Shown piece after piece: positions 4,519 through 51,316 of a stretch of 64,000 bases of DNA (positions are counted from its first letter, which is position 1; every line of letters begins with the position of its first letter). The notes under the pieces were generated by a model. It made no database searches. It was not told the DNA's origin and saw only the letters and a program-made list of their open reading frames with translations. The stretch lies in contig CM059186.1 in assembly GCA_030323885.1 (NCBI GenBank), positions 149,952,407-150,016,406 on the forward strand. The letters are read 5' to 3'. The stretch is from Branchipolynoe longqiensis. Taxonomy: Eukaryota; Annelida; Polychaeta; Phyllodocida; Polynoidae. The position numbers were made by a program, and so were the translations under genes.

Positions 4519-4650
4519 AGGGCGCTGTGTTGCTCTCTCCTCACAACTTCTCCAGCATGCCACCGAAACATCCAGCTCCAGCTCCAGCTCCACTTCCACT
4601 TGTGCTCAAACCCCCACTATGGGAGGGGAAGAGGGAAGGGGAGGAAGAGG

Positions 4651-9837: not shown

Positions 9838-9907
9838 GACCCACTCAGGCACATGTATCCACTGCGAAGAGCGGAGCTGTTCTGCTGACAGGAGGACATC
9901 TGAGGCC

Positions 9908-18316: not shown

Positions 18317-18778
18317 CTACGACGAAGTCTCAATGGGCGTAGTAATGGTGGGGGTGGTCGAGGTGGTGGTGGTAATGATGGTGCTGGTGTCTGCCGGGAC
18401 TTCAACGGTGGCTGGAGATGGCATGGCGCGCTTTGCAGCTGGAGAAGCAACAGTGGGTGCCTCAGCAGGGGCAGCGGCAGCAGCTGGCGTTGCAACAGCT
18501 GATTCAGACACCTTGGATATGGCAACCTTAAAGATATTGATCTTGGTGGTTAGAAGACTGGATTCCAGGTGCTCGGTCAATGCAGTGATGCTGATTAACT
18601 TCTCCTTACCATCACCACGGTCATCAAGGAATGTCAAGCATTCCACCTTCTTGCCTGGCTCGATCATGTCAGACTGCAGGGAAATGTTTCCGCCTTCTGT
18701 TGTGATGCCCCACTCCAGAGTCTTCAGTGTAGTCAGTGGCTTAACCGCCTTCAGAGTGTTTGCATTAATCAGTGCCGC
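18317..18778 (-). CDS. gene A last coding exon: final LRR and Ala/Pro/Thr tail
   Basis: 462 nt ending in TAG. Starts AALINANTLKAV, LTTLKTLEWG (last LRR), then a conserved segment with GKKVECLTFLDD, ISITALTEHL and IFKVAISKVSES. It ends in an Ala/Pro-rich and Thr-rich low-complexity tail that differs in gene B. Confidence 0.85.
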   Translation of the reverse strand, partial: AALINANTLKAVKPLTTLKTLEWGITTEGGNISLQSDMIEPGKKVECLTFLDDRGDGKEKLISITALTEHLESSLLTTKINIFKVAISKVSESAVATPAAAAAPAEAPTVASPAAKRAMPSPATVEVPADTSTIITTTTSTTPTITTPIETSS

Positions 18779-21700
18779 CTGAGTGAAAACATAACGCTGG
18801 TTAGTGTGAATAGGCACACACAACTCTAAATGCAAAACAAAATTATTACAGCTCAGACATCCTATGCATAGTCCTCTCCTCTCCACATAAAAGAAAGCTT
18901 ATTACCACCAGGATTTGTGTGTGACGTAGTCATAACATTACTCCTGCATCGTGGTTGGATAAAAGCAGTTCATTCTGCTATCAAGTGTATGTAAATAAAA
19001 CAAAAAGCACAAATCTATTCACTGATATGATCTAATTCTGTTATTTAGGACCATGAATATTCAATCGGGGGTTGAAATAATATCATTTATGAGAATAGCT
19101 TACTCAAAAAGTGAAATCCTGTCAAATTAAACCCTAAATCCTGGCGATATTAACGCCACCGCCGCATCGGCAGTGTTATGCTGTACTTTCTATCCAACCA
19201 TGATAGCCGACGAGGCACTGATCACGTGGTGCTAATCGTTTCACGCAAATCCTCAATAAAAAACCTATATAACTGTAGTGAGGTGCACTGACCTCCCCAG
19301 TTGAAATGTCACATACACAGGTCAGCATGGGTAGGTTGATTGCATTGCGAAATCTAAATAGGATAATGGTTAGACTGCTGGTCCCACAATGGCAGAAGTG
19401 TGGGTTTGAGTCCTGCTTTAGGCATACTTTTTTGCACACACAAAAAAACAGCCTTCATAACATAATTAATCATTTCTTATGCGACATAAAAAATAGGTGT
19501 CGATTGATCAAAATTGGATTTGTATTTGATAGAAACTGCCATCGACTCATTCTAAATATTTCAATTTTCAATCATTTTTTTATTTTGATAATTTTTAATT
19601 CGTCCCTCATATTTAAGCTTCTTATCCACTAATACAGATACACTAAGTTATTCTGAATTCCCTTGAATCGATGTCCCGAATTGAGAAAAGATTTTAATTC
19701 AGATTTAAATCAGATACAGATGCTCATCACTCCTTACATTATATATAGAGAGGGCCGGCTTTAAGCCAATTGACTCAATTGCTCCCAATTGGGCTCAGCG
19801 CCCATGGGTCACCACGCTAGGGTAATCTACGCAAGTAAATCATTTCACTAAAACAGACCGTAGGTGTGAACCTGGGCGCCCCACCAAAAATGTTCCCAAT
19901 TGGGAAATGCAATTCCAAAGGCCGGCCTTCAGTATATATATATACCATATTCTCAATAGATTTTCATCTGAATATTTGGAGCTCTTGTTGCCATATTCTC
20001 TCCTATTTTTTCCAATGGCATTAACAATGTGTAAACTACTATGGTTAAGTTGTTAGCGATGCAACACAAACTCACCTTATCCAGGATATCTGGCCACAGT
20101 GTGACTGATGTCAGCTTAGGGAGTTCCTTCAGGGCACCAGCCAACGTGGCATCCACTGCGTACCTGATAAGTTCCAGCTTTTCGAGTCTGTAACCACGAA
20201 ACATGCAATAGCGGGTATATAACTTACCATCTGACATTAATTAACATTGGCAGTGGAAAAGAGGGGGGCTACCATAAGGTACTGCACATCTCATACAAAG
20301 AGCCTGTTACCAAAGAAGAAGTCAGTGCAAATATCCAGCGGACAATTGGACCACAGGAAGATCTCCTGACGATCGTAAACAGATGCATACTGCAGTGGTA
20401 TGGTCGTATTTTCCGTTTATCAGGTTTTGGTCAAAACCATCTTGAAAGGCACAGTGAAAGGGGGAAGAAAACAAGGCGGACAATGGAAGAAGTGGGAAGA
20501 CACCATCAGGGAGTGGACAGGCCTGGAATTTGGCAAGTCCCAGAGGGCAGTAGAAAGCAGGGGACAATGGAGAAAATTGATTGCAAAGTCATCTGTGGTG
20601 CCCCACTGATCACAGTTAAGGGATTAATGATGATGATGATGATGATGATAATGATGATTGAAGATTTATACTGCATATCATGGATAAGTCTGAATAGACT
20701 TGTTTTCACCATTATACAGTTTGTCGATAGAAAGCCCGAGCCTACACTTTTACCGACCCAAGGGATTTTGAACCTCCCACACCGCATAGACATAGTATGA
20801 GAGCAACCAGCCTTTGATGACGCTGTAAGTTATACACAGCGGTGGAAATCCAAAGTGGCAGAGATGGGGGCATGGGGAATCGAACCACTGACCTTCAGAT
20901 TAGGAGTCCAACCTAGAAAAAAGTCACACTCTAACCACTCCGCCACAGAGAACACCACATGATGTGCAGCATACTCTGTGGAAAAGGTCTTATAGATGAT
21001 TTTGACCAACTTACTCTCTGACTTTAGTTGAAGAACTACTATTGTTGGTAGCAACTTTCTCTGCAGGATGTTCTGTAGAAAAGGTCTTAAGAGAGGATTT
21101 TCACTTGTTTCTAGCAACTCATTGTGCAGCCTGCTCTGTGGGAAATGTCTTATAGAGGATTTTCACCATCAACACACCCTCTGCTAGCAGTAGCAAGAGT
21201 AAAAGTTCACAGTGCGACATACTCTGTGGAAAGGTTGTTATAATGATGTTGTGGCTAGCAGCTCCCTGCACATGCTCTGAGAACAAGATCTATTACTTAC
21301 TTCTTGAGCTGCTTGATAGCGTTACCGACGGCTGGTTCAAGAGTGTCTCCGCCACATTCTAAACGCACTCTTCGCAGATTGGTCAGCTCAGCAAACTGCA
21401 TGTATACCTGTAAATAAAAAAGGCTTGCTTACATCAACTAAACTTTTGTAATAAATTTATCTTATTTGTAAGTTTTATCAATCTGAACTGTATGTGATGC
21501 TTACATGTTAATTAGCATAGAATGAAACTACATTCCCTTATGAATTACATTAGAGGGCCAAACATAGTCACTACTCTCCCCCTACCCCCCCCCTGCCCTT
21601 GCCCCTCCCCCCCCCCCGCCCTTGCCGCTCCCCCACCTCACCATCCCGTGGTTAGAGCTATGAACTAGTGGTCGTGACGCGGGAACCAGCAGTTAAATTT

Positions 21701-24700
21701 GGCCAACTCGGCAGTGACAAAAAACTGACCAGATAAGCGAAGTATCACATTACTTTGCTACACATACTTATATTTACTTCATACTACTAATTTAAACACA
21801 TGGCTTACACATATTTTGTAATAAGCTTCATTCACCTCCTCAAGTGAAATGCCACATAGAACATACAAAAGTAGGTGGGGATAGGTTGATTGCATCACAC
21901 AGCTTAGATAGTTAGGAACATGCCACGGAATAGTAGGCTATTGAACCTTCCGCGTATATGTAATAGATAGATGGTTGGTTGATTGGCTGTTGGAGTTGTA
22001 ACGTCCTAGCAACATCTAAAGTCATATCATTTGTTTGTTTGTTGTTGTTTTAGCAACATCTAAGGTCATATCAGGACGGTAGGTCTTATCAGGACGGGTA
22101 CCAACTTGTGACTCGCCGTGACTATGGCCTATGCTGCCGATACGGCGTAAAGCAACCACCAATCAATCAATCAACCAACTTGTGACAGTGTGCACTCATG
22201 GTGACTTTATAGTGCTGCCCCACTGGGAGACCAGACTGCCAGCACCATGACCTGATATCCCACTCAGTCACATTATCCTGACTGAGCCAACCATTCATTG
22301 CCCTATTCTAATAATACCAATTTCCTGGCTAGGAAGCGACAAGTATAAATTTTATAAGTCATTGGTTTTACTCGACCGGGAATTGAACTGCCGCCCTTCC
22401 GTACGGGAGACCTGCGGTCTACCAATTCGGCCACCGCATCCGGTAACCATAAGTTTGAGAGTTAGGATTCCAGGGGAACAGGATAGTGAGTGACACCCAT
22501 GTTCCCAGGGGAAATGCCACATACACGTGACATGAGTAGGATGATGGTATCAGGGAACTTTGAAGTTAGGAACCTCACTCTATGAGGAGTGCCGCTCTAG
22601 GCAGGGTGCCGTGACCAGAATACTGTACATGCTGAGTGCTGTATCACTATACCCACTATACAACCTGGGCTAGTTGGGGTTTCTTTTTTTTGGGGGGGGG
22701 AAGGGCAGTATCAATCAACCTAATCACTCTGCGCACCACCTACCTGTTCCGTCCACATGGCACAGTCGCCAATCTCGAGCACTTCCAGGTTCTTGAGATT
22801 CTTGAGGAACATAAACTCAGACTCGGGAATGTTGCGTAGCGTCGTCAGTACCTGGAGCCAAAAGGCAGCCAAAGCATTATGTTATATATATATTATGTAA
22901 TGACTTCAGACATTGCCAGACCCAACTAACCAATATATATATATTTGAGCTACATAAGAACATGGAAGACATCCATGTGTATATAAATGTTGTAGCTCAT
23001 ATATAAATATTATATATATATGGTATCAGACTTTAACAGTGACAGGTTCTGTTAAAATAACTTAATATTTCTTTTCTGTAACAATTAATGTTTACCAAAT
23101 ATAGCAGTATCTAAATAAATCTACAAATGGATTGCATCTAAGTAAGTGTTTTGGTTTATAAAAGGTATTATTCAACATCCATATGGCATGAAATATATTA
23201 TTCGAATATAAAAACACAGAAACATTTTTATTCTTGTCCTACAAGGCTATCAATAGCTGAAGTACTATATCACACACTGTAAAATGTTGATACAGAATTT
23301 TAGTCTGTCAAACTTCAATTAGTAATCAGCAGGCAGAAAGTAACTTACTAGTGTCTTGAGGTTTGTAAGTGCTGCTAAGTCGACGAGTCCACCACTGAAG
23401 GAGAAAGCTGGCAGCACAAGACCGCAAACACCTCGCAGTTTCAGGTGATCCAGCTGTTTCATGGAGGCGAATTTTCCAATGTCGATCTTTGTATTTGTTG
23501 TCCTATAGATAGATAGATAGATAGAACAGATTAAAATCAGTGATTTAATTCTCTGGATGCTGCAGGGTTCGATATGGGCATCAACTTTTCTAAACCAAAA
23601 CACTTCCCAAGATTTGATTCCACATTGCTAACTTCCTGTATTCCCATGGGTTAATGCCCATATGTGGATTAATGCCCACCCCCCACTTGGCCGTCTCCCG
23701 TTTTGGTAGATCGTAGTATTCGAACCCACAGGTTCAGACCCTGGTAGAGTCAAACCAAAGACATAAACATTTACACTTGTCACTTCCTAGCCAGGTGCTC
23801 TGCATTATTCGGATAGGGCAAGAACTGGTTGGCTCAGTGTCAAGATAATGTGACTGAGTGGGATATCAGGTCATTGTGCTGGTGGACTGGTCCCCCACTG
23901 GGGCAGCACTATAAAATCGACATGAGTGCGCAGTGTCACAAGTCAGTACCCATCCTGATATGAGCTTAGATGTTTCCAGGATGTAAAACTCTTAACAACC
24001 AACCCACCTCCCCAGTACATCAACTCTAGTATTCAGAATATTAAGAAAGAATAGTCAAATGATAAAAATTGAGTGTTAAAAATAAATGTTATGAACACAA
24101 TAAGCAAAAATATTAAAACTGACAATTACAAATTCCAATAACAGTTAACTAACCACATCTGTGACTCTGCCACCATGTCCGTAACTGACTCAGCACACAG
24201 TACTTCGAGTTTGTGCAACTTCTCGACAATGGCATGTAGGATGCAGGCAGGCGAGTAGTCGAAGTGCATGCATCGCACTTGGTCGAGATTCTCGAGAACT
24301 GCAGTGAACTGATGCCAGGTCCGGTTACGGTCTTCAGACAGCATACCCCGTAGGTCCTGTTAGAACATAAGTATCTTCTGTTTATTTCATGGAGTAGAGT
24401 GGCACAAAGTTGATATATGAACACACATATCAAAATACATTTCGACCTTAAATTGGGATAGCAGGGAGGTGGGGGGTACAGTTGAAAGAATCACATTAAG
24501 GTGGTCTGCAACCCAGAATTATGCACTAACTTAAATATTAGTTAATTAAAGTTGCATAATCCGATGGCTTTGGGTTTTTGCCATATTTCTTTTACATTAT
24601 ATTATGCTTATCATTATAATCTACTTTACTTAGTTTGAAGTTATTTTTTATTTTTAAACGCTAACTTTGGAGATATTTAAATTGAAAACACGCAAAACTA

Positions 24701-27700
24701 TGTACTTCAAAATGCTAGGCATCAGACTTTAGCAGTGACAGGTTCTGCTAAATAACTTAATATCGCTTTTCTGAAAGAATAAATGCTTACCAAAGATACA
24801 CCAGTATCTAAATAATCTATGAATGGATTGAATCTAAGTAATCGTTTTGGTTTATAAAATTGTTTGCTTTCAACGGCTTATGCAACTTTAATGTAGCCCG
24901 ATGCAATTAGTTGCAGAGATAACAGAACACCATAAACTGACTTACCAGAGAGTATGTGTTGTGACTTTTAAATCTCTTAGCGGCTTCTTCCCAGTTAGAG
25001 ACTCTGCTTCCTCTCAGTCTGACCTCCTTCCACTGAGAATAGATGGAAAAAAAGAGAGATGCTAGCCTACTGACAAGTATTACATTCACATACCTGTCTA
25101 CCCCAAATAACCTATTTGGTTATTCCAGTGAAAATAATTACGTACTTTCCTAAATAAATGTGTACTTACAAAATTTTGTGGATACATAAAATTATAATTT
25201 AGTGTACTCTGGCTTAAAACTTTGTACAAAATAAACAAAAGTTATATCGGTAGGTAGGCCTCTTGCCTACCCAAATTTCCTATTGGGTACTCCAGTAAAA
25301 GAAAGACTGTGTACTTTCAACAACAACAAATATATAGCAAACAGCAGCATCGCGGCATTATGACAAGTGTCCATTCTTACTGGAAGCAAGGACCGGATGT
25401 AGTGGCTAAATCGCTAAGAGTACTGGCTTCCCAGTCTCAAGGTTAAGGATTCGAATCCCAGCTGAGTTTTAACCAATGACTTACAAAATTGATACTTGTC
25501 ATGACCTAGCCTGGCACTCAGCATTAACAGGAATGGACAAGGACTGGTTAGTTCAGTATCAGGATAATGTGACTGAGTGGGATAATCAGGTCATGGTGCC
25601 AGTGGCCTGGTCTCCCAGTGGGGCAGTACTATAAAGTTGCCATGAGTGAATGCTGTCACAAGTCAGTACCCGTCCTGATATGACCTTACATATTGCTAGG
25701 ACATAAATCCCCAAGAAACAAACAAACAAAGTGAAAGCAGGCAACCCTCTTTGGTTGTACTCACAAATGTGTCGTGAGATGACAACTTCGCCCACATCCG
25801 ACAAACTCTGGCCACCCTGAAAGCAGAGATTTAAAAGATGTAACCTTAACGAACAACTGTAGTGAACAATCAACCAGGCGGGATGACCAAATGAGTTCAT
25901 CACCCGTGTCTCGTCCACTTCCCTCATTGTCTTTGCCTGAGTCAAATTAATGATGACTTAAAGATTTATACTTGCCGCCATCTAGCTTGACTTTCAGCAT
26001 TACTTGGATTGTACGAGGAACAGTGGAATGAGGAAGAGATTGAAATTGCCCCCGCTTAATCAACAAATGTGAACCCAATGATATATATGTACACAAATTG
26101 ATACTTGTCGCTACATAGCCTGGTGCTCGACATTACTGGGATTGGGAAAGGACTGGTTAGCTAAGTATCAGGATAATGTGACTGACTGAGATATTGGGTC
26201 ATGGTGCTAGCAGCCTGATCTCCCAGTTGGCCAAATAGTATAAAGTCACCATGAGTGCGCATTGTCACAAGTCGATACCCATCGCGATATGACCATAGAT
26301 GTTGCTAGGACGTAAAACCGTAACAAATATACAAATTGATCACTGAAGCCGGGTAACTACTGTAACTGCAATATCGAACCAACCTTAACAAGTCTGCTAC
26401 GCCGACGAACTTGAAGATTTTGATCAAGAGGCTTGAATGCAGCTTCAAGAAGTGACACTCGTTGGGGTTGACGACCACAATTTGCTTGCACCACATCTTC
26501 CCTAGTAAAGCCTCAGCCTTCTTTCCCTCTGCGCCATCACCACCTTCCACGCCCAGTGTGGCTGCAGATGTCATCTCACCCTGGTCCGCGATGTTGAGAA
26601 TCTGCTCATCATCCTGTGCGTAGAATTTGAAGTCAATCGGATCGTTCCTCTCCCTGAAGAGCGTCTCGGGTAGAGTTCCGGACGGTAGAAGCACCTTCAG
26701 CGACCCGTTGAATGAGATGAAGCAATTCGGTGGGATCATCAGCACTTTGTTGTTCACTTTGAGCGCGAGCGGCTGAGACATGTCCAGATGCTTTAATACA
26801 CCAGGGGGTAGTGTCATCAACTGCCCGCTCACCTGCATCTGGTTTATGATATTGGCTAAGTCCACCATCGTCACATCATCGCAAGGGCTTTTGGGAGAGA
26901 CTGCCTTGGATTTGTTGAGTTCATCAACGACCTCCATAGACTGATGTTGATTGTCTACCAAATCACTTGATCCACATGACTGGAAGATACCAAAAGACAA
27001 TTATATTCGATGTACAATTAAATTTGTCTGAGAATATTCTGAAAGATTACTCTTAAGGGACAAGCCTCAATTCAAATAATAGCGTTTTTTTATCAAATTG
27101 TAGTGGTCTGCACTGACCTCTTAGGCAAGGAGCCGCATAAACAGGTAGGCGTGGGTAGTGTGTTGATATCAGGGAGCCTAGGTGGTGTAATGGTTAGCAC
27201 ACTGGCCCGGAATGGACCGGAATGCAGAGATGTGGGTTCGAGTCCCGCTCTCGGCACAATATTTCCCATTTTCATCACCCCCATGACACTGGTTGCCATG
27301 ACCAGGATCCTGTACAAGCTACGCGCTGTATAGTTGTTGAACCTACCCTGTGTATGTAAGTGCGTTGCATTGCCTGTATGTATGTAATTGTAAGCATTAA
27401 AAGACTTACAATTCCAGGGGGACGAGTGTAGTGGTCTGCACTGACCTCTTAGGCAAGGAGCCGCATAGACAGGTAGGCGTGGGTAGTGTGTTGATATCAG
27501 GGAGGTGGTGTAAAGCCTAGGTGGTGTAATGGTTAGCACACTGGCCTGGAATGGCGCGGAATGCAAAGATGTGGGTTCGAGTCCCGCTCTCAGCACAATA
27601 TTTCCCATTTTCATCACCCCCCATGACAAAATGTAATTTTAGCCTTATATTTTGTAAATATGTTCATTATACTGAATGTTCTTTTGTCAGCGCCAAAGCA

Positions 27701-33700: not shown

Positions 33701-36700
33701 TTTGATGACGCTGTAAGTTATACACAGCGGTGGAAATCCAAATTGGCAGAGCTGGGGGCACGGGGAATCGAACCGCCGACCCTCAGATTAGAAGTCTGAC
33801 CTAGAAAAAAGTCAGACACTCTAACCACTCCGCCACAGAGAACGCCACTTAGTTAGCTAAATTAGTATTTTTACCTAAACCCAGAATGTACTGAATTAAC
33901 CCTGCGTGGGAAAACTCCCTAAAACCCTGTCTACATATAAAATGCACACAGTGAATGACTGCTCCCGCATAAATACAACACAAACGCTTTATTAGATAAA
34001 TGCAGTAACAATACTCTATTATCTTAAATTTGTCCTTGTAATTAAATGGTGTAAATGACTGAAGTTAAACATGGCCAGAAGACCAGTGCCTCAGCTCTGA
34101 AGAAAGATGGTATTCAAATGAATTTAAACAAAATTATTTTACCAAATAATACCCAAAAAAGGTTCTTTGTAGCATTTTAAAGAGCAGTATGAATGCGGTT
34201 ATCCACTCACCCGTCGGTAACATCAGATGTCGCCGGTTTCTCAGGCTCCTTCTCAGTTGTTGACTCAGTCATGGCTTTTAGCGGCTTTTCTGATGTAGAC
34301 TCGACAATTGGTTTTGCAGGTTTCTCAGGCACCGACTCGACCGTTCGCTTTACCACCTTTGCGGATGCTGACTCGACGATTGGGTTCATTGAATTTTCAG
34401 ATGCTGGTTCGACTGCAGGCTTTAGTGGTTTGTCGGTTGTGGACTCAACCACTGGACTCTTTGGTTCATCATGTGTCATCACAACCGGTTTATCGGATGG
34501 GGTTACCGCCTTCTCGGAAGGTGATGACGCAGCATCTGTTACAAATTTCTCAGGTGGAGACTCAACATCCATGGCTACCCGCTTCGCAGGTGGATACTCG
34601 ACATCTGCGGTTGCCAACTTCTCGGGTGGAGAAGCAGGTGGAGACTCAACATCTGAGATGACACGCTTCTGGGGCAGAGATTCTATATCTGCTTTTACCC
34701 ATTTCTCAGGTGGAGAAGCAGGTGGAGACTCGATATCCGCAGTTACCCACCTCTCGGATGGAGACTCGACATCTGTTGTTACCCGTTTCTCAGGCGGTGA
34801 CTCAACTTCAAATTCTGCCTGTTTTTCTGGTGGAGATCTATCTACAGCATCAACACGATCATCTGGAATCCTTGGTGCAGTTTTCTTTTTTGACATCGGA
34901 GCTGTATGCTTACGGGCAACAGCAAGTTTTCGGACAGGCTCCACCACCGAAGGCATTGGGACCGAAATGGTAGCAGATATTTGCTCATGCTTACTTGATG
35001 TTTCATACTTAAACGGTTTATCATGCTTACTTTTGTGGTGCTTATGTGGCTTGTCATGCTTACTTGACTTGTGTTTGTCTTTGTCGTGCTTATCAATTCT
35101 GTCATGTTTGTCATGCTTCTTCGATTTGTCATGCTTACTCGATTTGTCATGCTTATATGGTTTGTCATGTTTCCCCAGCATCTCTGGCTTACTTGGTCTA
35201 CCAGGTTTACTTGGACGAGTGGCTGTGAGATCCATGACAATCGAATGCTTTGAAGCAAAGCTCATCTGCGGTTTGTATTTTTTCATTGGCGGTCCCAACT
35301 CTGAGCTAAGCATATCATCTTCAGCGTTAGCAATGTTCGGAAAGAGCTTCTTCGACCTGTTCAAAACGGAAGAGTCAGAGGAGTCTGACGAGTCAGAGTC
35401 AGATAAGAGCAGACGCTTCTGGCCTTCATTGCCACCATGTCCCCGACCTCGACCCCGACCTCTACCCCGCCCACGTCCCCGACCGGAAGTCGAGGTGGAA
35501 GACTCCGAGTCGGACGCATTCTCGCGCTTGACCCCGCGACCTCGACCTCGACCTCGACCTCTGCCACGACCCCTGGTGGGGGACGGTGTACCGTCGAGAG
35601 GCGCCGGCATGCCGCTGGTGCCCAAGCTGGACTTGGACACTCGACCAGGTTGCAGGTTTGCACCACGCATCATTTCCTGTGGCTCCTTGTAAATGGTGCG
35701 TTTCTGGAACGTGAAGTTGTCCTTCGACAGATCTGTGATGCCGAATTGGTCCACTGTAAGACAACGGTCAGATACATGCAAAAGACATTTCTACGATAAG
35801 TGAATACAGAGGAAGACGGACATGATATGACATCCCGTCCATAGGTAGTAGAAATATATATATTCGAAAACAGAGCCAGCTGGATGTGAATACAGAGGAG
35901 GGTGGAGATGACATGTCATCCCTAGTTTCGTAAACAGAAATATATATATTAGAAAACAGAGCCAGCTGGATGTCATCCCTAGTTTCGTAAACAGAAATAT
36001 ATATATTAGCAAGCAGAGATGTGAATATAGAGGAGGGTGGGAATAACATGCTATTCATACAAAAATATATATTAGCGAAACATAGAGAAATGTGATGAAA
36101 CTAGAACCTCATAATTTTTATAGGTGCATAATTCAAGTTGCAAATCCGATGTTTTTGAGTTTCTGCCATATTCTGGGATCTGATTGGCTATCAGCAAAAA
36201 ACTGAAAGTCTGACCGGGGGTTTGGAGGCCACCCAGGTTTGGCCAATAAGAATTGATTTTACAATAAGGAGTGCCATCTAATAATGATCTAGCACAAATA
36301 GTCAACAACTGAATGTACCGCAACTTTGTGAAAGCCAGTATTACCAGCAAACCAGCTGGCTTCCCGGGCACAGGTTAAGCCCCCCCCCCCCCAATATAAC
36401 ACCATGTATCTTTTAACCGGATCTGCAAGAATCACAAAAATGACCAATTCCATTATTAAAAACTCGTAAATCTCTGAATCTGTGGAAAAATCACATTCCT
36501 GCATATTTGTTTGATTAATATATTAGGTTAATGGTTGTAATAAACCTTACTTTAGTTTGAACTAACTGTTTATTAAAAATGGCTAATTTTGTAGGTATTT
36601 TAAAGTGAAAATATGCTAAATAACTTTTGGTGTGCACACCAAAATGCGGGACACCATAGATATTAGCAGTAACAGGTTCTATTAAATTGACTGAGTATTA

Positions 36701-39700
36701 TTCCCTATGGTACTATAGAAAGTATCATAAAACACACATACCACTAAGACTACAACTGCTGCTACTACTACTAGCAGTGTAGTAGTTTCAGTAACTGTAG
36801 TAGTAGTATTAGTAATAGTAGTAGTTTCAGTAACAGTATTTTATGCTACTATCTGTAGAAGTAGTAGTATTATTAGTAATAGTAGTATTACTACTAGTAC
36901 TATACTACTGCTACTACTTACTATTAGAGAGCATTTGACACAGTAGACCACAAAATACTACTGGAAAAACTAAAAACTATGGGCATAAAATCCAACACTA
37001 TGGATTGGATAAGATGCTACCTGAACAACAGGCAACAGAAAACAAAAATAAACAATACACTATCAGACAACCAACCTGTCACATGTGGTGTACCCCAAGG
37101 GTCAGTGTTAGGGCCACTACTCTTTATAATCTATATAAACGATCTTGAAAAATGGTTGCAAACTGAATGCCTCCAACTATATGCAGATGACACAGTCATA
37201 TACGCAAATGGCACCACAGAAGAGGAGGTAATAACTAAACTAAATAAACTCCTACTAAAACTAGATGAGTGGTGTGGGTCCAACAAAATAACCATCAACA
37301 CTAGCAAATCAAAAACAGTACTCTTCTCGCATAAATTAGAAAATTACACTGTAAGTTAGGAAACCAAACACTAGAAAATGTAGACCATTAGAAATACCTT
37401 GGCCTTGAGTTGGACAGCCAACTAAACTACAACCTATGTATAAATAAAATTATACAAAAAGTAAACCACAAACTGTGGCTATTTGCAAAGCTAAGAGACT
37501 ACATGACACAAGAAATGTCAATAAAAATCTTCAAGGGCATGGTGCACCCCTATTTTGACTATGGAGATGTAAACTACATGGGTGTGAGAAAAGAACTACT
37601 AAAAAAACTGCAAACACTGCAGAACAGAGCCCTAAAAATCTGTCTAAGAGTAGACAAGCTGCACCCCACCTATGACATACACAAAAGAACCAAAGTGAAA
37701 TTACTAGAAAATAGGAGAATAATTCATTTGAACACATTAGCATATAGCTATAGTCAAAACATTAAACTTCTAACAAAACCACAAAGGGCTACTAGAGCAA
37801 ATAATGCGCCACTACTAAAGCAGACCAGAAGCCAAATAAAAGCTCATGAGAGAAGCACGCTCGAAATGGCTGCCAAGGTGTGGAATGCCCAAACGGTAAA
37901 GGAACGACAAATTCCTGACCTAAAAACTTACAAAAAATATCTGTGCAAAATAAGGCTAGGAAACCCCCACTAAGCTGCACTGCAAAGGGCATGTGATATG
38001 TCACGGCCCACCAGCGGGATGCCCAATGGAAGGTAACCATGCCAAAAGTAGCCAGATAACACCCCACACAGCTACGTACAAGCCTATGATATGTAAATAG
38101 GAGTAGGCTAGTCTAGTAATAAGAGTAGAAAAAATAAATACACATATACCAAGAAAATCCAAAAAAACTAACATAGGCTATTAACCATACCAACCAATTA
38201 TCTATCTGCTACTAAAATGCAGGCAAACAAATACCTTATCAGCAGCTACTGTGGGGTAAGATAACACCAACACTACAACTGGCCAGCATTGAAAACAAGC
38301 CTGGGTACCCGGGCTTATATGCTATGGACAGTATAAATACAGCCTCAATAATTAAAAACAAAAAAACAAAAAAAACAACAGTTACCTTCTAGTTCTAATC
38401 TAATTATGGACGTTCCTGCCAAATGCATGTTTCACTATTAATTTTAATATACTCACAGTACTTTTCGATTTCCACATAAGACCGCTGAAAAAATAGACAA
38501 GAAACATGTGTATGAGTGCCAGCACGAGTGTTGGCCATGCTTAATGAATGTTATTTTGTACATGTTTACACCATGAAACCTATACAGGGATGATAGTGAT
38601 TTCAGGGAGAAAAAAAGCGGAAATCAAGCCAAGATTATTATCTCGATGGTAAATTTGCGTCTTAGAGGCTAGGTACCGTACCACATCTTTTTTATTTAAA
38701 TGTCCCCAGCCTGTGAAAAAACCTCGGAAATCCACTTAAAAACGGAAAAATATCATCCCTGCTATAACAGTAATCTTGGAGAAATCCAATTGACGAGACG
38801 GCTGGAGAGCACTACAGTAGTGCCTGGCTTCAATGACAGCGATATCCAGTACAGTGAAACCCTGTTATAATACGATCGTTGGGGTCCATACAACGTCATC
38901 GCAAAAACAGTGGGGTTGCATTAAATTGGGGGTCAGTTTATATAATTACATCATTGTCGTCATCATCATCATTATCATGATGACGACAATGATGTAATTA
39001 TATAAACTGAACCCCAATTTAATGCAACCCCACTGTTTTTGCGATGATGTTGTATGGACCCCAACGATCGTATTATAACAAGGTTTCACTGTACTGATAT
39101 GACCTTAGATGTTGCTAGGACGTAAAACAACAACAAACAAACAACAATCATCATTATCATATTAGATTAGATAGTGAACTATCAGAACATATATCTTGAT
39201 TACTAACTATCAGAACATATATCTTGATTAGTACTGAGATGGCAATGTACATATTGGAATGCCTAATAGTTATTAAGGAAGTAAGTGGAAGTAGGTGTAA
39301 GTAAGTATCAGTAACGGTAAGTAGATGGAAGTAGCTGGAAGTAAGTAAGTGGAAGTAGATGGAAGTAGGTGTAAGTAAGCAGAAGTAAGTGGAAGTAGGT
39401 GGAAGTATCAGTAAGAGTAAGTAGGTGGAAGTAAGTGGAAGTAGATGTAAGTAGGTGTAAGTAGGTGTAAGTAAGCGGCAGTAGGTGTAAGTGGGTGTAA
39501 GTAGGTGTAAGTATCAGTAAGAGTAAGTAGGTGGAAGTAGGTGGAAGTGAGTGGAAGTAGATGTAAGTAGGTGTAAGTAAGCAGAAGTGTAAGTAGGTGT
39601 AAGTAGGTGTAAGTAGGTGTAAGTATCAGTAAGAGTAAGTAGGTGTAAATAAGTGGAAGTGGAAATAAGATGTAAGTAGGTGGAAGTAGGCGCAAGCAAG

Positions 39701-41424
39701 TGTAAGTAGGTGTATGTATCTGTAAGTAAGTGAAGTAAGCTTAAGTAAGTTCAAGTGTGTGTAACTGGAAGTATGTTTAAGTATCTGTAAGTATTTATAA
39801 GTAAATGTCAGTACGTATAAGTAAATGTAATAAGTGTGTAAGTAAATGTATGTGTAAGCAGGTGTAAGTATGTACAACTAAGTGTAAGTATGCATAAGTA
39901 TGTTTAACTAAGTAAATAAATAAGTACGTAAACAATCAAGTAGTTGGGACTCACCAGTTTTTTGCCCTTGGGTGTGAAGTAATATGCATCGAGAGTGGCG
40001 CTTGTGGCCCGCTGGACAATTTCTCTCCGCCATCCTGTAAATAGCCATGTTACATTACAGTTACAGTTATTGCCTGCTGTCTACGAGGTTTCTTCTGCTG
40101 TGGTGGTAATAGTTGTTTGTTTGTTGTTGTTTTACATCCTAGCAACATCTAAGGTTATATCAGGTACCGAGTTGTAACAGTGCGCACTCATGGTGACTTC
40201 ATAGTGCTGCCCCACTGGAAGACCAGGCCAACAGCACCATGACCTGATATCCCACTCAGTCACATTATCCTGACACTGAGCCAACCAGTCCTTGACCTAT
40301 CCTAATCATGCCAAGCGCCAGGCTACGAAGCGACAAGTATACATTTTTACGTCATTGGTTTGACTCGACCAGGGTTCGAACCCACGATCCCATGGTCTAC
40401 CAACACGGGAGACCGACGCCCTAACTCATTCGGCCATCCCGTCTGGTGTGGTGGTAATAGACAACCAACATAGTTGACATAAGAAGCAAGGACCACCTAA
40501 CACCAAAGCTCAATTGGTGATCTTTTGTGACATGATAAACTATATCTAATTTGTATTAAGAATATAAATCTATTGAAATATCCACTTTACAGATTGATTT
40601 GATCGATTTGATAGATTATTTTATGCCATTTCGGCAGTAAAAGTCATTGCCATAGCGGTGAAATTCCAATATTTTCATGTATTTCCTAACAACAGGGATG
40701 AGAACAGGTCAGGCTGGTATATAATATTAATAAGGTGCTTTAGAACAGAGTAAATTGAGGGGTACTTACCTGTCTCAAACGGAACAAGCCACCGAGGGTC
40801 GATATCAGTGTTGGACGACTTTGCACCTAATAAAAAACAAAGATCATAATTTGTTTAAATCATTCAATAAAATACTAAGAATAAACCAAAAATACAATTA
40901 TTCGCTCGTGTTTTAGAATTTCTTTTAGCACATAATTCTTATTGTGTCTACAGGATAGATATGACCTGGTTTCTAGACATTACTCTTAGTGAATGAAACT
41001 ACAACTGACTTCACCAAATACCATGAAACCCCAATTTAACGCGCCCCGATATAACTTGAATTTGGGTATAATGTGATGATTCATTGGACACGAAATTCTT
41101 TAATTTAAAGGTAATTCAATCAACTGAACCCCCAATTTAGCGCGAACCCGCTTTTTTTGTGATGACTTTCTATGGACTTCAACGATGCCCTTATAACGGG
41201 GTTTCCTTGTCATCTAATAGGCCGCACTAGACTAATTCCTCCATTATAAGCCGCAGCTATGTGTTCTGGGGGATCTATACAGCGTTCATGCGTTGCTAAT
41301 ATTGCCACAGACCTCTGCCGCGCCCACGGCCCTTCGGTGACCGTGCAGGTACATCAAAGCCTTCGCCCACGTTGAACTCCTGGTCGATTGGCTCTTCGAG
41401 GAGCCTTCGCTCAAAGTCGTCCAT
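18317..41424 (-). CDS. gene A: MBD-PHD-F-box-LRR protein (complete model, 15 coding exons)
   Basis: Coding exons in order: 41424-41313, 40826-40770, 40034-39955, 38484-38457, 35753-34211, 28236-28095, 26979-26384, 25816-25765, 25032-24946, 24356-24154, 23502-23349, 22851-22744, 21407-21301, 20187-20076, 18778-18317. Every junction has GT..AG and matching phase, total 3,843 nt (1,280 codons plus TAG). Domains: MBD about 46-110; RG/KHDK/SPPEK disordered region about 120-605; PHD-like finger 613-656; conserved unknown block about 690-760; F-box about 828-875; LRR about 900-1150; Ala/Pro/Thr-rich tail. Predicted role (inference): nuclear SCF substrate receptor targeted to methylated CpG. Start chosen at the ATG with context GACATGG, after in-frame stops and just downstream of paired ETS sites. 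I know no vertebrate MBD protein with an F-box. Paralogue: gene B. Confidence 0.88.
18905..19257. mobile_element. MITE-beta copy in gene A intron 14
   Basis: Shares with 51465-51778 and 56877-57414 the ends AGGATTTG...CAAATCCTCAATA and the blocks CATGGTTGGATAGAAGCAG-like, ATCTAATTCTGTTATTTAG and CCATGAATATTCA. Non-coding. A TRIM-family head follows 18 bp later, as in gene B. Confidence 0.8.
19275..19425 (+). mobile_element. single TRIM-family terminal repeat (tRNA-like head)
   Basis: Starts GTAGTGAGGTGCACTGACCT and contains the tRNA-like GATAATGGTTAGACTGCTGG...GGTTTGAGTCC and TTTAGGCA. The second repeat is absent, so it is a solo-type copy. It lies directly after MITE-beta in intron 14. Confidence 0.7.
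20076..24356 (-). CDS. gene A exons 10-14: leucine-rich repeats
   Basis: Exons 24356-24154, 23502-23349, 22851-22744, 21407-21301 and 20187-20076. Repeating L..L..L.L segments (LDHLKLRG, LTNLKTLVLTTL, LKNLEVLEIGDC, LTNLRRVRLECG, LEKLELIRY, LPKLTSVTLW) form an FBXL-type LRR array, the expected substrate-binding part of an SCF receptor. Introns contain LINE, SINE-2, SINE-3 and MITE-alpha copies. Confidence 0.85.
20275..20660 (+). mobile_element. LINE 3' fragment in gene A intron 13
   Basis: Broken frames give the C-terminal end of a non-LTR retrotransposon ORF2: an EEVSANIQRTIG-like segment, ILQWYGRIFRLSG, then KKWEDTIREWTGLEF and QWRKLIAKSSVVPH. A (TGA)n-type tail ends it at about 20660. Strongly 5'-truncated. 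Confidence 0.72.
20725..20953 (-). mobile_element. SINE-3 copy
   Basis: Read on the minus strand: tRNA Leu/Ser-like head with GTGGCGGAGTGGTTAGAGTG and box-B-like GGTTCGATTCCCCATGCCCC, then a body with CCACCGCTGTGTATAACTTA. A second, very similar copy is at 33607-33844. Confidence 0.82.
21830..21965 (+). mobile_element. degenerate TRIM-family head
   Basis: Retains CCTCAAGTGAAATGCCACAT, GTAGGTGGGGATAGGTTGATTGC and a decayed tRNA-like part (TTAGATAGTTAGGAACATGCC). Confidence 0.45.
22018..22443 (-). mobile_element. SINE-2 copy with nested tail fragment
   Basis: Reverse SINE-2 (TCCCACTCAGTCACATTATC, GGTTTTACTCGACC). The tail is interrupted near 22100-22165 by a GCCGTGACTATGGCC/GCCGATACGGCGTAAAGCAACC segment matching a separate SINE 3' end seen at 42690 and 63340. 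The head carries a variant with two tRNA-like arms (GAGACCTGCGGTCTACCAAT). Confidence 0.75.
22450..22640 (+). mobile_element. degenerate TRIM-family copy
   Basis: Internal-part remnant (GGATTCCAGGGGAACAGG), then a head (GGAAATGCCACATACACG, GCCGCTCTAGGC), then internal part again (GTGCCGTGACCAGAATACTG). This supports a repeat-internal-repeat structure for the family. Confidence 0.55.
23018..23165 (+). mobile_element. MITE-alpha fragment in gene A intron 11
   Basis: Contains ATCAGACTTTAACAGTGACAGG, TAACTTAATATT and GTTTTGGTTTATAAAAG. It sits in the same intron, and the same orientation, as MITE-alpha 54855-55178 in gene B. Confidence 0.65.
23694..23997 (+). mobile_element. SINE-2 copy in gene A intron 10
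   Basis: Head (TCTCCCGTTTTGGTAGATC), body and tail (ATGTTTCCAGGATGTAAAAC) all present, moderately diverged. No counterpart in the short gene B intron 10. Confidence 0.82.
24540..24893 (+). mobile_element. MITE-alpha, full copy in gene A intron 9
   Basis: Bounded by TTAAAGTTGCATAATCCGAT and, inverted, TATGCAACTTTAA. The interior holds the family blocks (TTACTTAGTTTGAAGT, GGAGATATTTAAATTGAAAA, TTTTGGTTTATAAAA). Ends coincide with TTAA, suggesting a TTAA target or end. Confidence 0.75.
24946..25032 (-). CDS. gene A exon 9: post-F-box linker
   Basis: 87 nt, phase 0 on both sides. Encodes WKEVRLRGSRVSNWEEAAKR and RFKSHNTYSL. The initial W-K is the usual F-box C-terminal Trp. Same length as the gene B exon. 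Confidence 0.85.
25390..25716 (+). mobile_element. SINE-2 copy in gene A intron 8
   Basis: Complete SINE-2 (head GATGTAGTGGCTAAATCGC, tail GACCTTACATATTGCTAGGAC). It ends 50 bp before exon 8. Gene B has a SINE-2 in the same intron and orientation (57806-58140). Confidence 0.8.
25765..26979 (-). CDS. gene A exons 7-8: conserved block and F-box
   Basis: Exon 7 (26979-26384) holds a block strongly conserved in gene B around GQLMTLPPGVLKHLDMSQPL, KVNNKVLMIPPNCFI and LPSGTLPETLF. I do not recognise its fold. The F-box spans the exon 7/8 junction: CHFLKLHSS, IKIFKFVGVADLLR, then VARVCRMWAKL. It matches the Skp1-binding consensus (IF.F....DLLR....VCR.W). Exon 8 (25816-25765) is 52 nt, as in gene B. 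Confidence 0.85.
25870..26060 (+). mobile_element. SINE-2 variant (alternative 3' end), gene A intron 7
   Basis: Head AACCAGGCGGGATGACCAAATGAGTT, partial body, then the GTGGAATGAGGAAGAGATTGAAATTGCCCC variant end. Confidence 0.65.
26085..26320 (+). mobile_element. SINE-2 5'-truncated copy, gene A intron 7
   Basis: Begins in the body (TGATACTTGTCGCTACATAGCC) and runs to the tail (GATGTTGCTAGGACGTAAAAC). Confidence 0.78.
27100..27627 (+). mobile_element. TRIM-like / dimeric tRNA-SINE element, copy 2
   Basis: Same layout as 909-1412: terminal repeat 27100-27287, internal 27288-27427, terminal repeat 27428-27627. It is in gene A intron 6. The right repeat has a short internal duplication (GGTGGTGTAAAGCCTAGGTG). 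The flanking AAATT / AAAAT is an imperfect 5-bp duplication. Because both copies stop at the same CCCCCAYGAC point, the whole unit moved as one. Confidence 0.7.
28095..28236 (-). CDS. gene A exon 6: PHD-like zinc finger
   Basis: 142 nt. Spacing C-x3-C-x11-C-x2-C-x4-H-x2-C-x11-C-x2-C, with CGLAC, CKKC, LFHPACVG and FTCK; the last Cys comes from the first codons of exon 7 (SC). This is a compact C4HC3 PHD-type finger, a fold often used to read histone tails. Two extra Cys (CPDC, LCC) absent from gene B make the first ligand pair ambiguous in A. Confidence 0.82.
28960..31060. other. CpG-rich block of unknown origin in gene A intron 5
   Basis: Unlike its AT-rich surroundings, this 2.1-kb stretch is rich in CpG and in inverted repeats: GTCGGCGGTGTTCC near 29208 pairs with GGACACCGCCGAC near 29254; an alternating GC tract GCGCGCGCAAATTGCGCGCG is near 30222; a perfect hairpin is at 30291. 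Repeated TACGTA motifs occur at 29750-29960. No long frame. An AATAAA near 30500 would fit a long solo LTR, but no second copy proves it. Confidence 0.4.
30291..30317. other. perfect 10-bp hairpin
   Basis: CGTTGCTTAG, loop CGACTAG, CTAAGCAACG. It lies in the CpG-rich block just after the alternating GC tract. Function unknown. Confidence 0.8.
31480..31990. repeat. about 220-bp direct duplication with spacer
   Basis: Copies at about 31481-31700 and 31771-31990 share GGCAAGCTTTAACT, GACAGCCCGACAAGACAGGC, GCTTAGTGCTCAACTCTC and TTAATTAAAGCAGGACATTCC, with moderate divergence. In gene A intron 5. No recognised family. Confidence 0.85.
32380..32643 (+). mobile_element. MITE-alpha, right two-thirds
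   Basis: Contains AGATATTTGAAGTGCAAGCATGC, CAGTAACAGGTTCTATTAAATT and the end block CATCGGACTATGCAACTCTAA. Confidence 0.7.
33607..33844 (-). mobile_element. SINE-3 copy
   Basis: Nearly identical to 20725-20953. The tRNA-like head at the right end reads (minus) GTGGCGGAGTGGTTAGAGTG, with GGTTCGATTCCCCGTGCCCC. A fragment of the SINE-2 variant end in reverse lies immediately to the left (33543-33606), after a poly-T run. Confidence 0.83.
34211..35753 (-). CDS. gene A exon 5: disordered RG / KHDK / SPPEK-repeat region
   Basis: A single 1,543-nt exon. It starts with the last MBD residues (DQFGITDLSKDNFTFQ). Then come two Arg-Gly runs (up to eight RG pairs), an acidic Ser/Asp run (SDSDSSDSSDSS, CK2-like), a candidate SUMO-interacting motif (SIVMDLT), about 15 Lys-His-Asp-Lys units, a basic KKKTAPR motif, and some 15 degenerate repeats of the type VESPPEKRVT. 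Composition and repeats indicate intrinsic disorder. Gene B has the LFPNIA/LYPNIA, KKYKP/KKMKP, DLT and KK.TAPR landmarks but lacks the KHDK and SPPEK arrays, so these expanded in A or were lost in B. Confidence 0.85.
36122..36735 (+). mobile_element. MITE-alpha interrupted by another insertion
   Basis: The left end (AAGTTGCAAATCCGATGTTTTTGAG) and the remaining body (from about 36520: TTACTTTAGTTTGAACTAAC, GTGTGCACACCAAAATGC, GTAACAGGTTCTATTAAATTG) are separated by about 350 bp of unrelated sequence containing a C run at 36379-36392. Confidence 0.65.
36740..36925. repeat. (ACT/AGT)n trinucleotide-rich tract
   Basis: CTACTACTACTA and its complement TAGTAGTAGTA alternate. It borders the LINE fragment that follows. 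Confidence 0.9.
36926..38385 (+). mobile_element. 5'-truncated LINE (non-LTR retrotransposon RT) in gene A intron 4
   Basis: Starts inside the reverse transcriptase (AFDTVDHKILLEKL) and shows the palm motifs GVPQGSVLGPLLFIIYINDL and LYADDTVIY. A frameshift/stop zone lies at about 37350-37400. The C-terminal part (RT thumb and beyond) then runs to a stop at 37971, and an A-rich tail with ACAAAAAAACAAAAAAAACA ends near 38385. Belongs to the Jockey/CR1/L2-like group; clade not fixed. Inactive. Antisense to gene A. Confidence 0.88.
38457..40826 (-). CDS. gene A exons 2-4: methyl-CpG-binding domain
   Basis: Exons 40826-40770, 40034-39955 and 38484-38457, completed by the start of exon 5. The joined protein shows the MBD signature: GWRREIVQR, then DAYYFTPKGKKLRS, then VEIEKYL and a final DLSKDNFTF. 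Compared with MeCP2, positions equal to Arg111 (VQR), Asp121 (LDAYY), Tyr123 and Arg133 (LRS) are all kept, so methyl-CpG binding is plausible. The loop between the first Arg and the Asp has 6 residues instead of the 9 in MeCP2/MBD2, a shortened L1 loop. The introns carry a near-perfect palindromic MITE (38852) and a GTAAGT-rich minisatellite (39260). Confidence 0.88.
38852..39091. mobile_element. near-perfect palindromic MITE (pogo/Tigger-like ends)
   Basis: 240 bp, ends CAGTGAAACC..GGTTTCACTG, TA on both sides (38850-38851, 39092-39093). The two arms of about 115 bp differ at roughly three positions, apart from the ATCATCATC centre. A long hairpin would form in RNA of the gene A intron. CAGTRAAACC ends with TA duplication are typical of pogo/Tigger elements. 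Confidence 0.85.
39260..39910. repeat. GTAAGTAGGT minisatellite in gene A intron 3
   Basis: Irregular 5-12-bp units built from GTAAGT, GGAAGT and GGTGTAAGTA. The plus strand thus carries dozens of perfect 5' splice-site cores, while the transcribed (minus) strand reads ACTTAC/CACCTACTTAC. It ends 45 bp before exon 3. Confidence 0.93.
40105..40443 (-). mobile_element. SINE-2 copy in gene A intron 2
   Basis: Complete reverse SINE-2, among the least diverged copies (TCCTAGCAACATCTAAGG, GACCTGATATCCCACTCAGT, TGACTCGACCAGGGTTCGAA, TTCGGCCATCCCGTC). Confidence 0.87.
41022..41214. mobile_element. older pogo-like MITE in gene A intron 1
   Basis: Related to 38852-39091: left CATGAAACCCCAATTTAAC, right TTATAACGGGGTTTCCTTG, interior CCCCCAATTTAGCGCG and TTTTTTTGTGATGACTTTCTATGG. 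Diverged. Confidence 0.6.
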
Positions 41425-50428: not shown

Positions 50429-50911
50429 TTAGGTCAGGTCCACAGCGTCTGCTAGAGTTTCACCATCTCGATTTGGGGAGAGGACCAAACTGTCTGCAGG
50501 TGTGGCGTTGGCACTAGAAGGTGGGGTCGATGCTTTAGGGGTGGCTGCAGTGGTGATGGGAGCAGCAGCAGTGACAGCGGCGACAGCAGCAGTGGCAGCG
50601 GCAGCAGCAGCAGCCGGGGTGGCAACAGCTATGTCAGACACCTTGGATATGGGAACCTTGAAGACAGTGATCTTGGTGGTTGGAAGGGCAGCTCCCAGTT
50701 GATCCATCAGCGCTGTGATGCTAATGAACTTTTCCTTGCGCTCCTCTTCCCCATCGACGGGGTCTTCCAGGAATGTTAAACATTCCACCTTCTTGCCTTC
50801 CTCTACCTGTAGCGATATGGTGGCTGCCTCAGACATGATGCCCCACTCCAAAGTTTTCAATGTCATCAGCTGCTTAAGTGCCTTCAGCGTGTTTGTGTTA
50901 ATCAGCGCCGC
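50429..50911 (-). CDS. gene B last coding exon
   Basis: Final LRR (LMTLKTLEWG), conserved GKKVECLTFLED and VFKVPISKVSDI, then a long Ala/Thr/Val run and a C-terminus with DAVDLT before the stop. The tail is unrelated in detail to gene A's Thr-rich tail. Confidence 0.85.
   Translation of the reverse strand, partial: AALINTNTLKALKQLMTLKTLEWGIMSEAATISLQVEEGKKVECLTFLEDPVDGEEERKEKFISITALMDQLGAALPTTKITVFKVPISKVSDIAVATPAAAAAAATAAVAAVTAAAPITTAATPKASTPPSSANATPADSLVLSPNRDGETLADAVDLT

Positions 50912-51283: not shown

Positions 51284-51316
<33 letters not shown>

What the first reader, a model, noticed from the sequence alone, without database searches (positions are those of the whole stretch)
18317..41424. 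MBD-PHD-F-box-LRR protein: a possible methyl-CpG-directed SCF ubiquitin ligase receptor
Seen: 15 exons with consistent splice phases join an MBD (GWRREIVQR, DAYYFTPKGKKLRS, VEIEKYL), a compact C4HC3 finger, an F-box (IKIFKFVGVADLLR, VARVCRMW) and LRRs in one frame of 1,280 codons. Established: vertebrate MBD proteins (MeCP2, MBD1-6, SETDB1/2, BAZ2A/B) have no F-box; FBXL19 and KDM2A/B combine a CXXC finger (unmethylated-CpG reader), PHD, F-box and LRR. Inference: this protein has the same plan with the CpG reader of opposite preference, and could bring SCF ubiquitination to methylated DNA. I am not aware of a description of this architecture.
Basis: partly seen in the sequence, partly recalled or inferred. 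Interest (0 to 1): 0.92.

Follow-up and report, generated by a model that had tools for sequence, protein, structure and literature searches.

The report
Methyl-DNA reader fused to ubiquitin-ligase receptor
This is one of two neighbouring copies of an apparently undescribed gene, shared by molluscs, worms and insects, that joins a likely reader of methylated DNA to a part expected to recruit protein-degradation machinery, and its methyl-reading residues are changed in insect groups that lost DNA-methylation enzymes.

Summary
Confirmed and extended. The 15-exon minus-strand gene is real (1,280 aa). Pfam finds MBD (E 3e-15) and F-box (3e-9); the finger is a divergent PHD-type; the LRRs resemble SKP2. 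Relatives with MBD and F-box occur in molluscs, annelids, a brachiopod, chelicerates, a myriapod and insects, mostly filed as uncharacterized. The window also holds most of an intact tandem paralog; the genome has DNMT1. Function was tested by comparison: five residues aligned with the methyl-CpG contacts of MeCP2/MBD2 are intact in 153 of 155 rows outside three lineages, and changed in 15 of 15 rows from Diptera, Braconidae and Dendroctonus ponderosae, which lost methylation enzymes; 13 of those 15 keep a Pfam F-box. Tribolium castaneum, without detectable 5mC but with DNMT1, keeps all five. Best reading: a protostome methyl-CpG reader that brings SCF ubiquitin ligase to methylated DNA. mCpG binding, Skp1 binding and substrate are untested. 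Seven paper searches for the architecture found no description. Hymenoptera, whose MBD2/3 is reported to have lost its mCpG-binding exon, keep this MBD intact in 58 of 58 named non-braconid rows.

The parts
18317..41424 (-). gene A, coding span (15 exons, 1,280 aa)
41313..41424 (-). gene A exon 1
40770..40826 (-). gene A exon 2 (start of MBD)
39955..40034 (-). gene A exon 3 (MBD; contact residues R65, D72, Y74)
38457..38484 (-). gene A exon 4 (MBD; contact residues R84, S85)
34211..35753 (-). gene A exon 5 (end of MBD, long linker)
28095..28236 (-). gene A exon 6 (PHD-type finger)
26384..26979 (-). gene A exon 7 (end of finger, conserved block, start of F-box)
25765..25816 (-). gene A exon 8 (F-box)
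24946..25032 (-). gene A exon 9 (end of F-box)
24154..24356 (-). gene A exon 10 (LRR part)
23349..23502 (-). gene A exon 11 (LRR part)
22744..22851 (-). gene A exon 12 (LRR part)
21301..21407 (-). gene A exon 13 (LRR part)
20076..20187 (-). gene A exon 14 (LRR part)
18317..18778 (-). gene A exon 15 (LRR end, C-terminal tail, stop)
35692..40785 (-). MBD, aa 52-113, over exons 2-5
26974..28217 (-). PHD-type finger, about aa 614-656, over exons 6-7
26617..26826 (-). conserved block, about aa 706-775, no Pfam family
25015..26451 (-). F-box, aa 831-876, over exons 7-9
50429..64000 (-). gene B (tandem paralog), the part inside the window; continues to about 69.7 kb in window numbering
63627..64000 (-). 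gene B exon 5, part inside the window (exon runs to 64359)
62775..62916 (-). gene B exon 6 (finger)
59558..60168 (-). gene B exon 7 (conserved block, F-box start)
58251..58302 (-). gene B exon 8 (F-box)
56156..56242 (-). gene B exon 9
55657..55862 (-). gene B exon 10
55311..55464 (-). gene B exon 11
54630..54737 (-). gene B exon 12
53639..53745 (-). gene B exon 13
52690..52801 (-). gene B exon 14
50429..50911 (-). gene B exon 15 (stop)

Best explanation
The gene encodes a chromatin-bound F-box/LRR protein of a protostome-wide family. Its MBD reads methylated CpG (inferred from conserved contact residues and their change where methylation enzymes are lost). Its PHD-type finger and basic linker add chromatin contacts (inferred). 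Its F-box docks Skp1-Cul1-Rbx1 and its LRR domain picks the substrate (inferred from family knowledge). The likely result is ubiquitination of a chromatin protein at methylated gene bodies. This genome carries two tandem copies. In Diptera and Braconidae the SCF half persists without an intact methyl-reading site, so the protein probably also has work that does not need 5mC.
For: MBD, F-box and LRR in one frame and in relatives from Mollusca, Annelida, Brachiopoda, Chelicerata, Myriapoda and Insecta. The five residues aligned with MeCP2 R111, D121, Y123, R133, S134 (labels recalled; alignments) are intact in 153 of 155 rows outside three lineages, and at least one is changed in 15 of 15 rows inside them; in those 15 rows 36 of 75 contact cells against 6 of 210 other conserved MBD cells are changed. 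The finger pattern is found in 6 of 6 Diptera rows and 6 of 6 braconid rows, a Pfam F-box in 6 of 6 and 6 of 6. Against a termite reference, 5 braconid MBDs are 50-59% identical versus a mean of 67% in 51 other hymenopteran rows, while F-box/LRR identity is the same (61-64% vs mean 62%). Methylation losses: braconids PMC10538959 (passages); Diptera and D. ponderosae PMC12370710 (passages). Own genome has DNMT1; window CpG o/e 0.62 with TpG/CpA 1.25. Copies A and B diverge under constraint: F-box/LRR dN 0.14, dS 1.00.
Against: No binding, ubiquitination or expression data. Tribolium castaneum (no detectable 5mC, DNMT1 kept) has all contact residues. Dipteran changes are mild (D to E, S to T; arginines kept) and their MBD is not faster overall (identity differences near zero). 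With Apis as reference braconid F-box/LRR is lower too (79-83% vs mean 93%) and some methylated Hymenoptera also show a lower MBD than F-box/LRR identity. Two of three D. ponderosae entries have no Pfam F-box (possibly gene-model faults). The independent-pairs test gives 3 same, 0 opposite, 1 tie, p = 0.25; the length-weighted chance is 9e-4 on the whole tree but 0.029 within insects. The pattern was noticed before it was tested. The best single PDB match of the MBD is BAZ2B, which lacks the aspartate and serine. Gene A lacks two residues at the F-box start that gene B has.
Confidence: 0.6

Rival explanations
1. The MBD is a general DNA- or chromatin-binding module (as argued for BAZ2-type TAM domains) or a protein-binding module (as in MBD5/6 with ASXL), not a methyl-CpG reader; the protein is an SCF receptor tethered to chromatin regardless of methylation.
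For: BAZ2B is the best PDB match. The gene and its F-box persist in 6 of 6 Diptera rows without methylation enzymes. MBD5/6 shows an MBD that binds a PHD finger and, as stated there, not methylated DNA (PMC9523997, passages). T. castaneum keeps the residues without detectable 5mC.
Against: The full contact set is kept in 153 of 155 rows and differs from BAZ2B at aspartate and serine; it is changed in the three lineages that lost methylation enzymes.
Confidence: 0.25
2. The protein reads methyl-CpG, but the F-box/LRR part acts outside SCF (as a scaffold or Skp1-only partner), so no ubiquitination is involved.
For: F-box proteins with non-SCF roles are known (recalled). Gene A's F-box start lacks two residues that gene B has. 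Two of three D. ponderosae entries have no Pfam F-box.
Against: F-box above Pfam cut-off in gene A and gene B; the F-box/LRR part is the most constrained stretch compared between the copies (dN 0.14); SKP2 is the nearest solved structure by sequence.
Confidence: 0.12
3. The model joins two neighbouring genes (MBD gene and F-box gene).
For: A CpG-rich stretch that could be a promoter lies in intron 5 at 30001-31250; no transcript of this organism was available.
Against: The same order in one protein in relatives of several phyla and in transcript-sized contigs; the tandem copy repeats the whole 15-exon plan.
Confidence: 0.03

Closest known systems
MBD proteins that read methyl-CpG (MeCP2, MBD1, MBD2, MBD4)
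   Same: MBD by sequence, with the R, D, Y, R, S contact set
   Different: None is known to carry an F-box or LRRs (recalled); here the effector half is an SCF-type receptor
BAZ2A/BAZ2B (TAM/MBD)
   Same: Best PDB match for the MBD is BAZ2B
   Different: BAZ2B lacks the aspartate and serine in the alignment; no DDT or bromodomain match here
KDM2A/KDM2B and FBXL19
   Same: CpG reader, zinc finger, F-box and LRR in one protein (plan recalled)
   Different: No CXXC or JmjC match; the CpG reader is expected to have the opposite preference
SKP2 and FBXL-class SCF receptors
   Same: F-box followed by LRRs; SKP2 aligned over about 280 residues, E 4e-6
   Different: SKP2 has no MBD and no PHD (recalled)
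UHRF1
   Same: A methyl-DNA reader and a PHD in a protein of the ubiquitin system (recalled)
   Different: UHRF1 uses an SRA domain and its own RING, not MBD and F-box (recalled)

Membership tests
[quoted passage not shown]
   56 bits vs 21 in gene A; 47 bits in gene B
[quoted passage not shown]
   R65, D72, Y74, R84, S85 in gene A; invariant in 13 of 13 aligned members including gene B
[quoted passage not shown]
   needs protein and DNA
F-box proteins (SCF receptors) | F-box above Pfam cut-off | tested here: met
   F-box-like 36.9 vs 24.3 bits in gene A; 43.4 in gene B
F-box proteins (SCF receptors) | LRR substrate domain after the F-box (FBXL class) | tested here: met
   LRR_14 45 vs 40 bits in gene B; only 27.2, below cut-off, in gene A; SKP2 aligned over the stretch
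F-box proteins (SCF receptors) | binding to Skp1 and ligase activity | not testable with these tools
   needs biochemistry; structure prediction was not accepted
PHD finger | C4HC3 ligand pattern | tested here: met
   8 ligand positions invariant in 12 of 12 rows; first pair spaced C-x3-C
PHD finger | Pfam PHD cut-off | tested here: not met
   PHD 11 bits vs 24; profile match to BPTF PHD only E 0.0014; hence called PHD-type, not filed as PHD
KDM2/FBXL19 | CXXC zinc finger | tested here: not met
   no CXXC match in Pfam up to E 1
KDM2/FBXL19 | direct sequence kinship of the F-box/LRR part | tested here: inconclusive
   no KDM2 chain among 10 PDB hits at E 0.01; no direct comparison made

The most novel reading that the evidence does not exclude
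A protostome-wide, undescribed class of SCF ubiquitin-ligase receptor that is directed by methyl-CpG and that, in Hymenoptera, where MBD2/3 is reported to have lost its mCpG-binding exon, is the principal intact MBD reader of gene-body methylation, converting it into ubiquitination of a chromatin substrate.
Probability: 0.3. Interest if true: 0.94.

Novelty: new variant of a known kind. Interest (0 to 1): 0.82.

Why it matters
How gene-body methylation is read in invertebrates is unsettled. The toolkit papers looked at here name MBD1/2/3 and MBD4 (PMC11292947, PMC8330077), MBD2 and MBD2/3 (PMC11050768) or MBD3 (PMC5799256) as MBD readers (passages only), and one reports that hymenopteran MBD2/3 lost its mCpG-binding exon, while adding that a new exon may restore binding and that biochemistry conflicts (PMC12696957, section 25). 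A second MBD family with intact contacts in bees, ants, beetles, molluscs and annelids, tied to an SCF-type receptor, is a concrete candidate reader with a predicted output. It is present in the honeybee (LOC412607) and can be tested with standard binding and pull-down assays.

Tried and rejected
Considered and rejected: that the gene is Drosophila six-banded (PMC9523997, passages, gives it as the MBD5/6 orthologue). That the fusion is a misjoined pair of genes (relatives and tandem copy speak against it). That the MBD is simply BAZ2-like (contact residues differ).

Led nowhere or went against me: the independent-pairs test (p = 0.25, only 4 pairs). T. castaneum keeps the contact residues without detectable 5mC. 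Diptera show no overall MBD acceleration, and with Apis as reference the braconid contrast is less clean than with the termite. Two of three D. ponderosae entries lack a Pfam F-box, and one of them also lacks the finger pattern (the third entry was not examined for it). In one search my F-box pattern picked the wrong stretch in Culex and Anopheles; the F-box there rests on Pfam. The MBD search of the own genome found the window gene and three others that I read, by recall, as BAZ2-like, MBD2/3-like and SETDB-like but missed gene B. The conserved block between finger and F-box gave only weak LRR matches (best E 0.018). An H3-tail-like motif (TARKST in 23 of 123 proteins examined) is not in the window genes and could not be tied to a function. 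Papers: 10 searches; seven looked for the architecture, of which three returned no paper; in the other listings I saw no title or abstract start that describes an MBD-F-box protein. The library lacks most subscription papers and bioRxiv.

Limits: each protein search scored only the about 8,000 candidates sharing most exact words and listed at most 120, so the lack of a named deuterostome, cnidarian, nematode, flatworm or lepidopteran row is not proof of absence. Rows are not species: some are isoforms, and twelve are near-identical unnamed jgi beetle contigs. 16 of 186 family rows did not match my MBD pattern and were left out of the residue counts. Two braconids (Microctonus, Diachasmimorpha) are assumed, not documented, to lack methylation, and the methylation status of most other species was not checked. 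Copy number in other genomes was not examined.

Full report
The gene. Pfam finds MBD (aa 52-113, E 3e-15), F-box-like (aa 838-876, E 3e-9) and weak LRR; PHD scores only 11 bits, far below cut-off. In 12 of 12 aligned members the finger keeps C-x3-C, C-x2-C, H-x2-C, C-x2-C, and its profile meets PHD fingers such as BPTF (E 0.0014), so I call it a divergent PHD-type finger. The F-box/LRR part matches SKP2 over about 280 residues (E 4e-6).

The family. Three protein searches returned 14 of 15 hits, 110 of 120 listed out of 124 hits, and 120 of 120 listed out of 385 hits that I count as family, with overlap; a few are fragments without the MBD. Named holders include gastropods, bivalves, a chiton, Lamellibrachia, Owenia, Lingula, Limulus, scorpions, a tick, Nymphon, Strigamia, termites, a cockroach, Anabrus, a leafhopper, beetles, a flea, many Hymenoptera including Apis mellifera LOC412607, mosquitoes and a gall midge. 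Most names are 'uncharacterized' or 'hypothetical'; some are misleading (titin homolog, mucin). No named deuterostome, cnidarian, nematode, flatworm or lepidopteran was listed. Six unnamed contigs of 3.9-6.4 kb carry 1,201-1,637 aa uninterrupted, which looks like mRNA (inference). The F-box/LRR tree of 84 chosen rows broadly follows animal groups, with long and unsure branches; the window sits with Lingula (SH-aLRT 85), so I take the 1.85-Gb genome to be a lophotrochozoan, without naming it.

A tandem copy. ORFs at 50429-50947 and 59527-60189 proved to be exons of a second gene. With the neighbouring 40 kb its 15 exons were placed at 69689 to 50429 in window numbering: 1,020 aa from the aligned start, 584 of 980 aligned residues (60%) identical to gene A, with canonical finger and F-box and the same MBD contact residues. 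Its true start lies further upstream and was not determined. Between the copies dN/dS is 0.31/1.33 overall and 0.14/1.00 in the F-box/LRR part; in the MBD part dS is saturated. Both look kept by selection. No further copy appeared within 10 kb on one side or 40 kb on the other; the whole genome could not be searched for more. Gene A looks the more derived copy: an expanded linker rich in K, H and D and a two-residue gap at the F-box start.

Does the MBD read methyl-CpG? The residues known from MeCP2 and MBD2 as methyl contacts (labels recalled: R111, D121, Y123, R133, S134 of MeCP2) align with R65, D72, Y74, R84, S85 of gene A (alignments). Of 186 family rows, 170 matched my MBD pattern; 16 fragments or models did not and were dropped. 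Two rows at first misaligned (P0070, P0088) are intact. The five residues are intact in 58 of 58 named non-braconid Hymenoptera rows, 29 of 30 named beetle rows other than Dendroctonus (the exception, Agrilus, has a gap in the model), and 66 of 67 other rows (the exception, P0036, is an unnamed contig). At least one is changed in all 15 remaining rows: 6 Diptera (D to E, S to T), 6 Braconidae (first arginine lost in all six, to K, I or N) and 3 entries of Dendroctonus ponderosae (D to S, S to T, one also R to K). The taxonomy of the six braconids, Venturia and the gall midge was checked.

These lineages lost methylation enzymes. PMC10538959 (passages) reports that braconids lost CDCA7 together with DNMT3 (M. 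demolitor, C. [quoted passage not shown] demolitor has no detectable 5mC, and that the ichneumonid Venturia canescens keeps CDCA7; Venturia's MBD is intact here. PMC12370710 (passages) lists Diptera and D. ponderosae as having no methylation toolkit and T. castaneum as DNMT1 only. Nicrophorus and Photinus, both methylated (PMC4700941, PMC6191289; passages), and Onthophagus, reported with complete machinery (PMC5105290; passages), are intact.

How specific is the change? In the 15 rows 36 of 75 contact cells are changed against 6 of 210 other conserved MBD cells (rows are related, so the Fisher value 1e-18 overstates it; collapsed to three lineages, 10 of 15 against 4 of 42 columns, p 5e-5). 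Against a termite reference, 5 braconid MBDs are 50-59% identical and other hymenopteran rows average 67% (n = 51, lowest 47% in one odd model, next 63%), whereas F-box/LRR identity is the same, 61-64% against a mean of 62%; one row (P0072) was skipped. Against Apis the contrast is less clean, because braconid F-box/LRR is lower too (79-83% against a mean of 93%), and Diptera show no overall MBD acceleration with either reference. The finger stays canonical in 6 of 6 braconids and matches my pattern in 6 of 6 Diptera; a Pfam F-box is listed for 6 of 6, 6 of 6 and, in D. ponderosae, only 1 of 3 entries.

What speaks against it. T. castaneum has no detectable 5mC yet keeps all five residues; it retains DNMT1. 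Few independent losses exist: the paired test gives 3 concordant, 0 discordant, 1 tie, p = 0.25; weighting by branch length, the chance that three changes all fall on 5mC-less branches is 9e-4 over the tree and 0.029 within insects. I saw the pattern before testing it. Methylation status was taken from papers for only some species and assumed for the rest.

Mechanism. Shown: domain chain, conservation, tandem duplication, DNMT1 in the genome (a 60-aa exon piece matches DNMT1 chains at E 6e-32), CpG depletion with TpG/CpA excess in the window (0.62 and 1.25). Inferred: the MBD binds methylated gene bodies; the F-box recruits Skp1-Cul1; the LRRs choose a chromatin substrate, unknown. Persistence of the SCF half in Diptera and braconids suggests a second, 5mC-independent role.

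Known or new. Seven of the ten library searches looked for the architecture and showed no description; papers on annelid, gastropod and bumblebee toolkits name only MBD1/2/3, MBD2/3, MBD4, MBD2 or MBD3 as MBD readers in the passages seen (PMC11292947, PMC8330077, PMC11050768, PMC5799256). PMC12696957 (section 25 read) says that hymenopteran MBD2/3 lost the mCpG-binding exon, that a new exon may restore binding, and that biochemistry conflicts; this family could fill that gap. I file it as an MBD protein and an FBXL-class F-box protein by sequence, not as KDM2/FBXL19 (no CXXC), and rate it a new variant of a known kind.

Noticed in passing
window 50429-64000 and onwards to about 69.7 kb in window numbering: Intact tandem paralog (gene B) of the reported gene, same strand and same 15-exon plan, 60% identical.
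   Followed up: yes
mollusc relatives such as P0003-P0009; gene A aa about 371-388: A short motif ahead of the PHD-type finger reads TARKST in 23 of 123 proteins examined, identical to histone H3 residues 6-11 (recalled), so a possible H3K9 mimic; gene A has ARKHTAP and gene B AKKRTGP there.
   Followed up: partly
window 26617-26826 (exon 7): Conserved block (GQLLTLPPGV...QPLALKINN...VPPSCFI...GLKVLLPP) between finger and F-box in lophotrochozoan members, without a Pfam family; not found by my pattern in Limulus or Strigamia.
   Followed up: partly
window 30001-31250: CpG-rich stretch (o/e 1.25-1.36) inside intron 5 of gene A, in an otherwise mostly CpG-depleted window; possible internal promoter or GC-rich repeat.
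   Followed up: no
window 4516-9906: MADF-type ORF (plus strand, E 1e-4) and DDE_Tnp_4 transposase ORF (minus strand, E 8e-19), a pair that recalls PIF/Harbinger transposons.
   Followed up: partly
window 36928-37973 (+): Reverse transcriptase fragment (RVT_1, E 4e-26) inside intron 4 of gene A, antisense to the gene; probably a non-LTR element.
   Followed up: partly
window 27176-27257 and 27515-27596: tRNA-like matches (Rfam 42 and 34 bits) inside intron 6 of gene A, apparently in two copies of one repeat; probably SINE heads.
   Followed up: no
window 44069-45077, 10892-11490, 17234-17808, 53894-54422: Tandem repeat arrays with units of 49/147, 15, 20 and 57 bases; the last lies in intron 12 of gene B.
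   Followed up: no
P0036 (unnamed contig, 607 aa): A compact relative with MBD, finger, F-box and LRR almost without linkers, but without the second arginine of the MBD; organism unknown.
   Followed up: no
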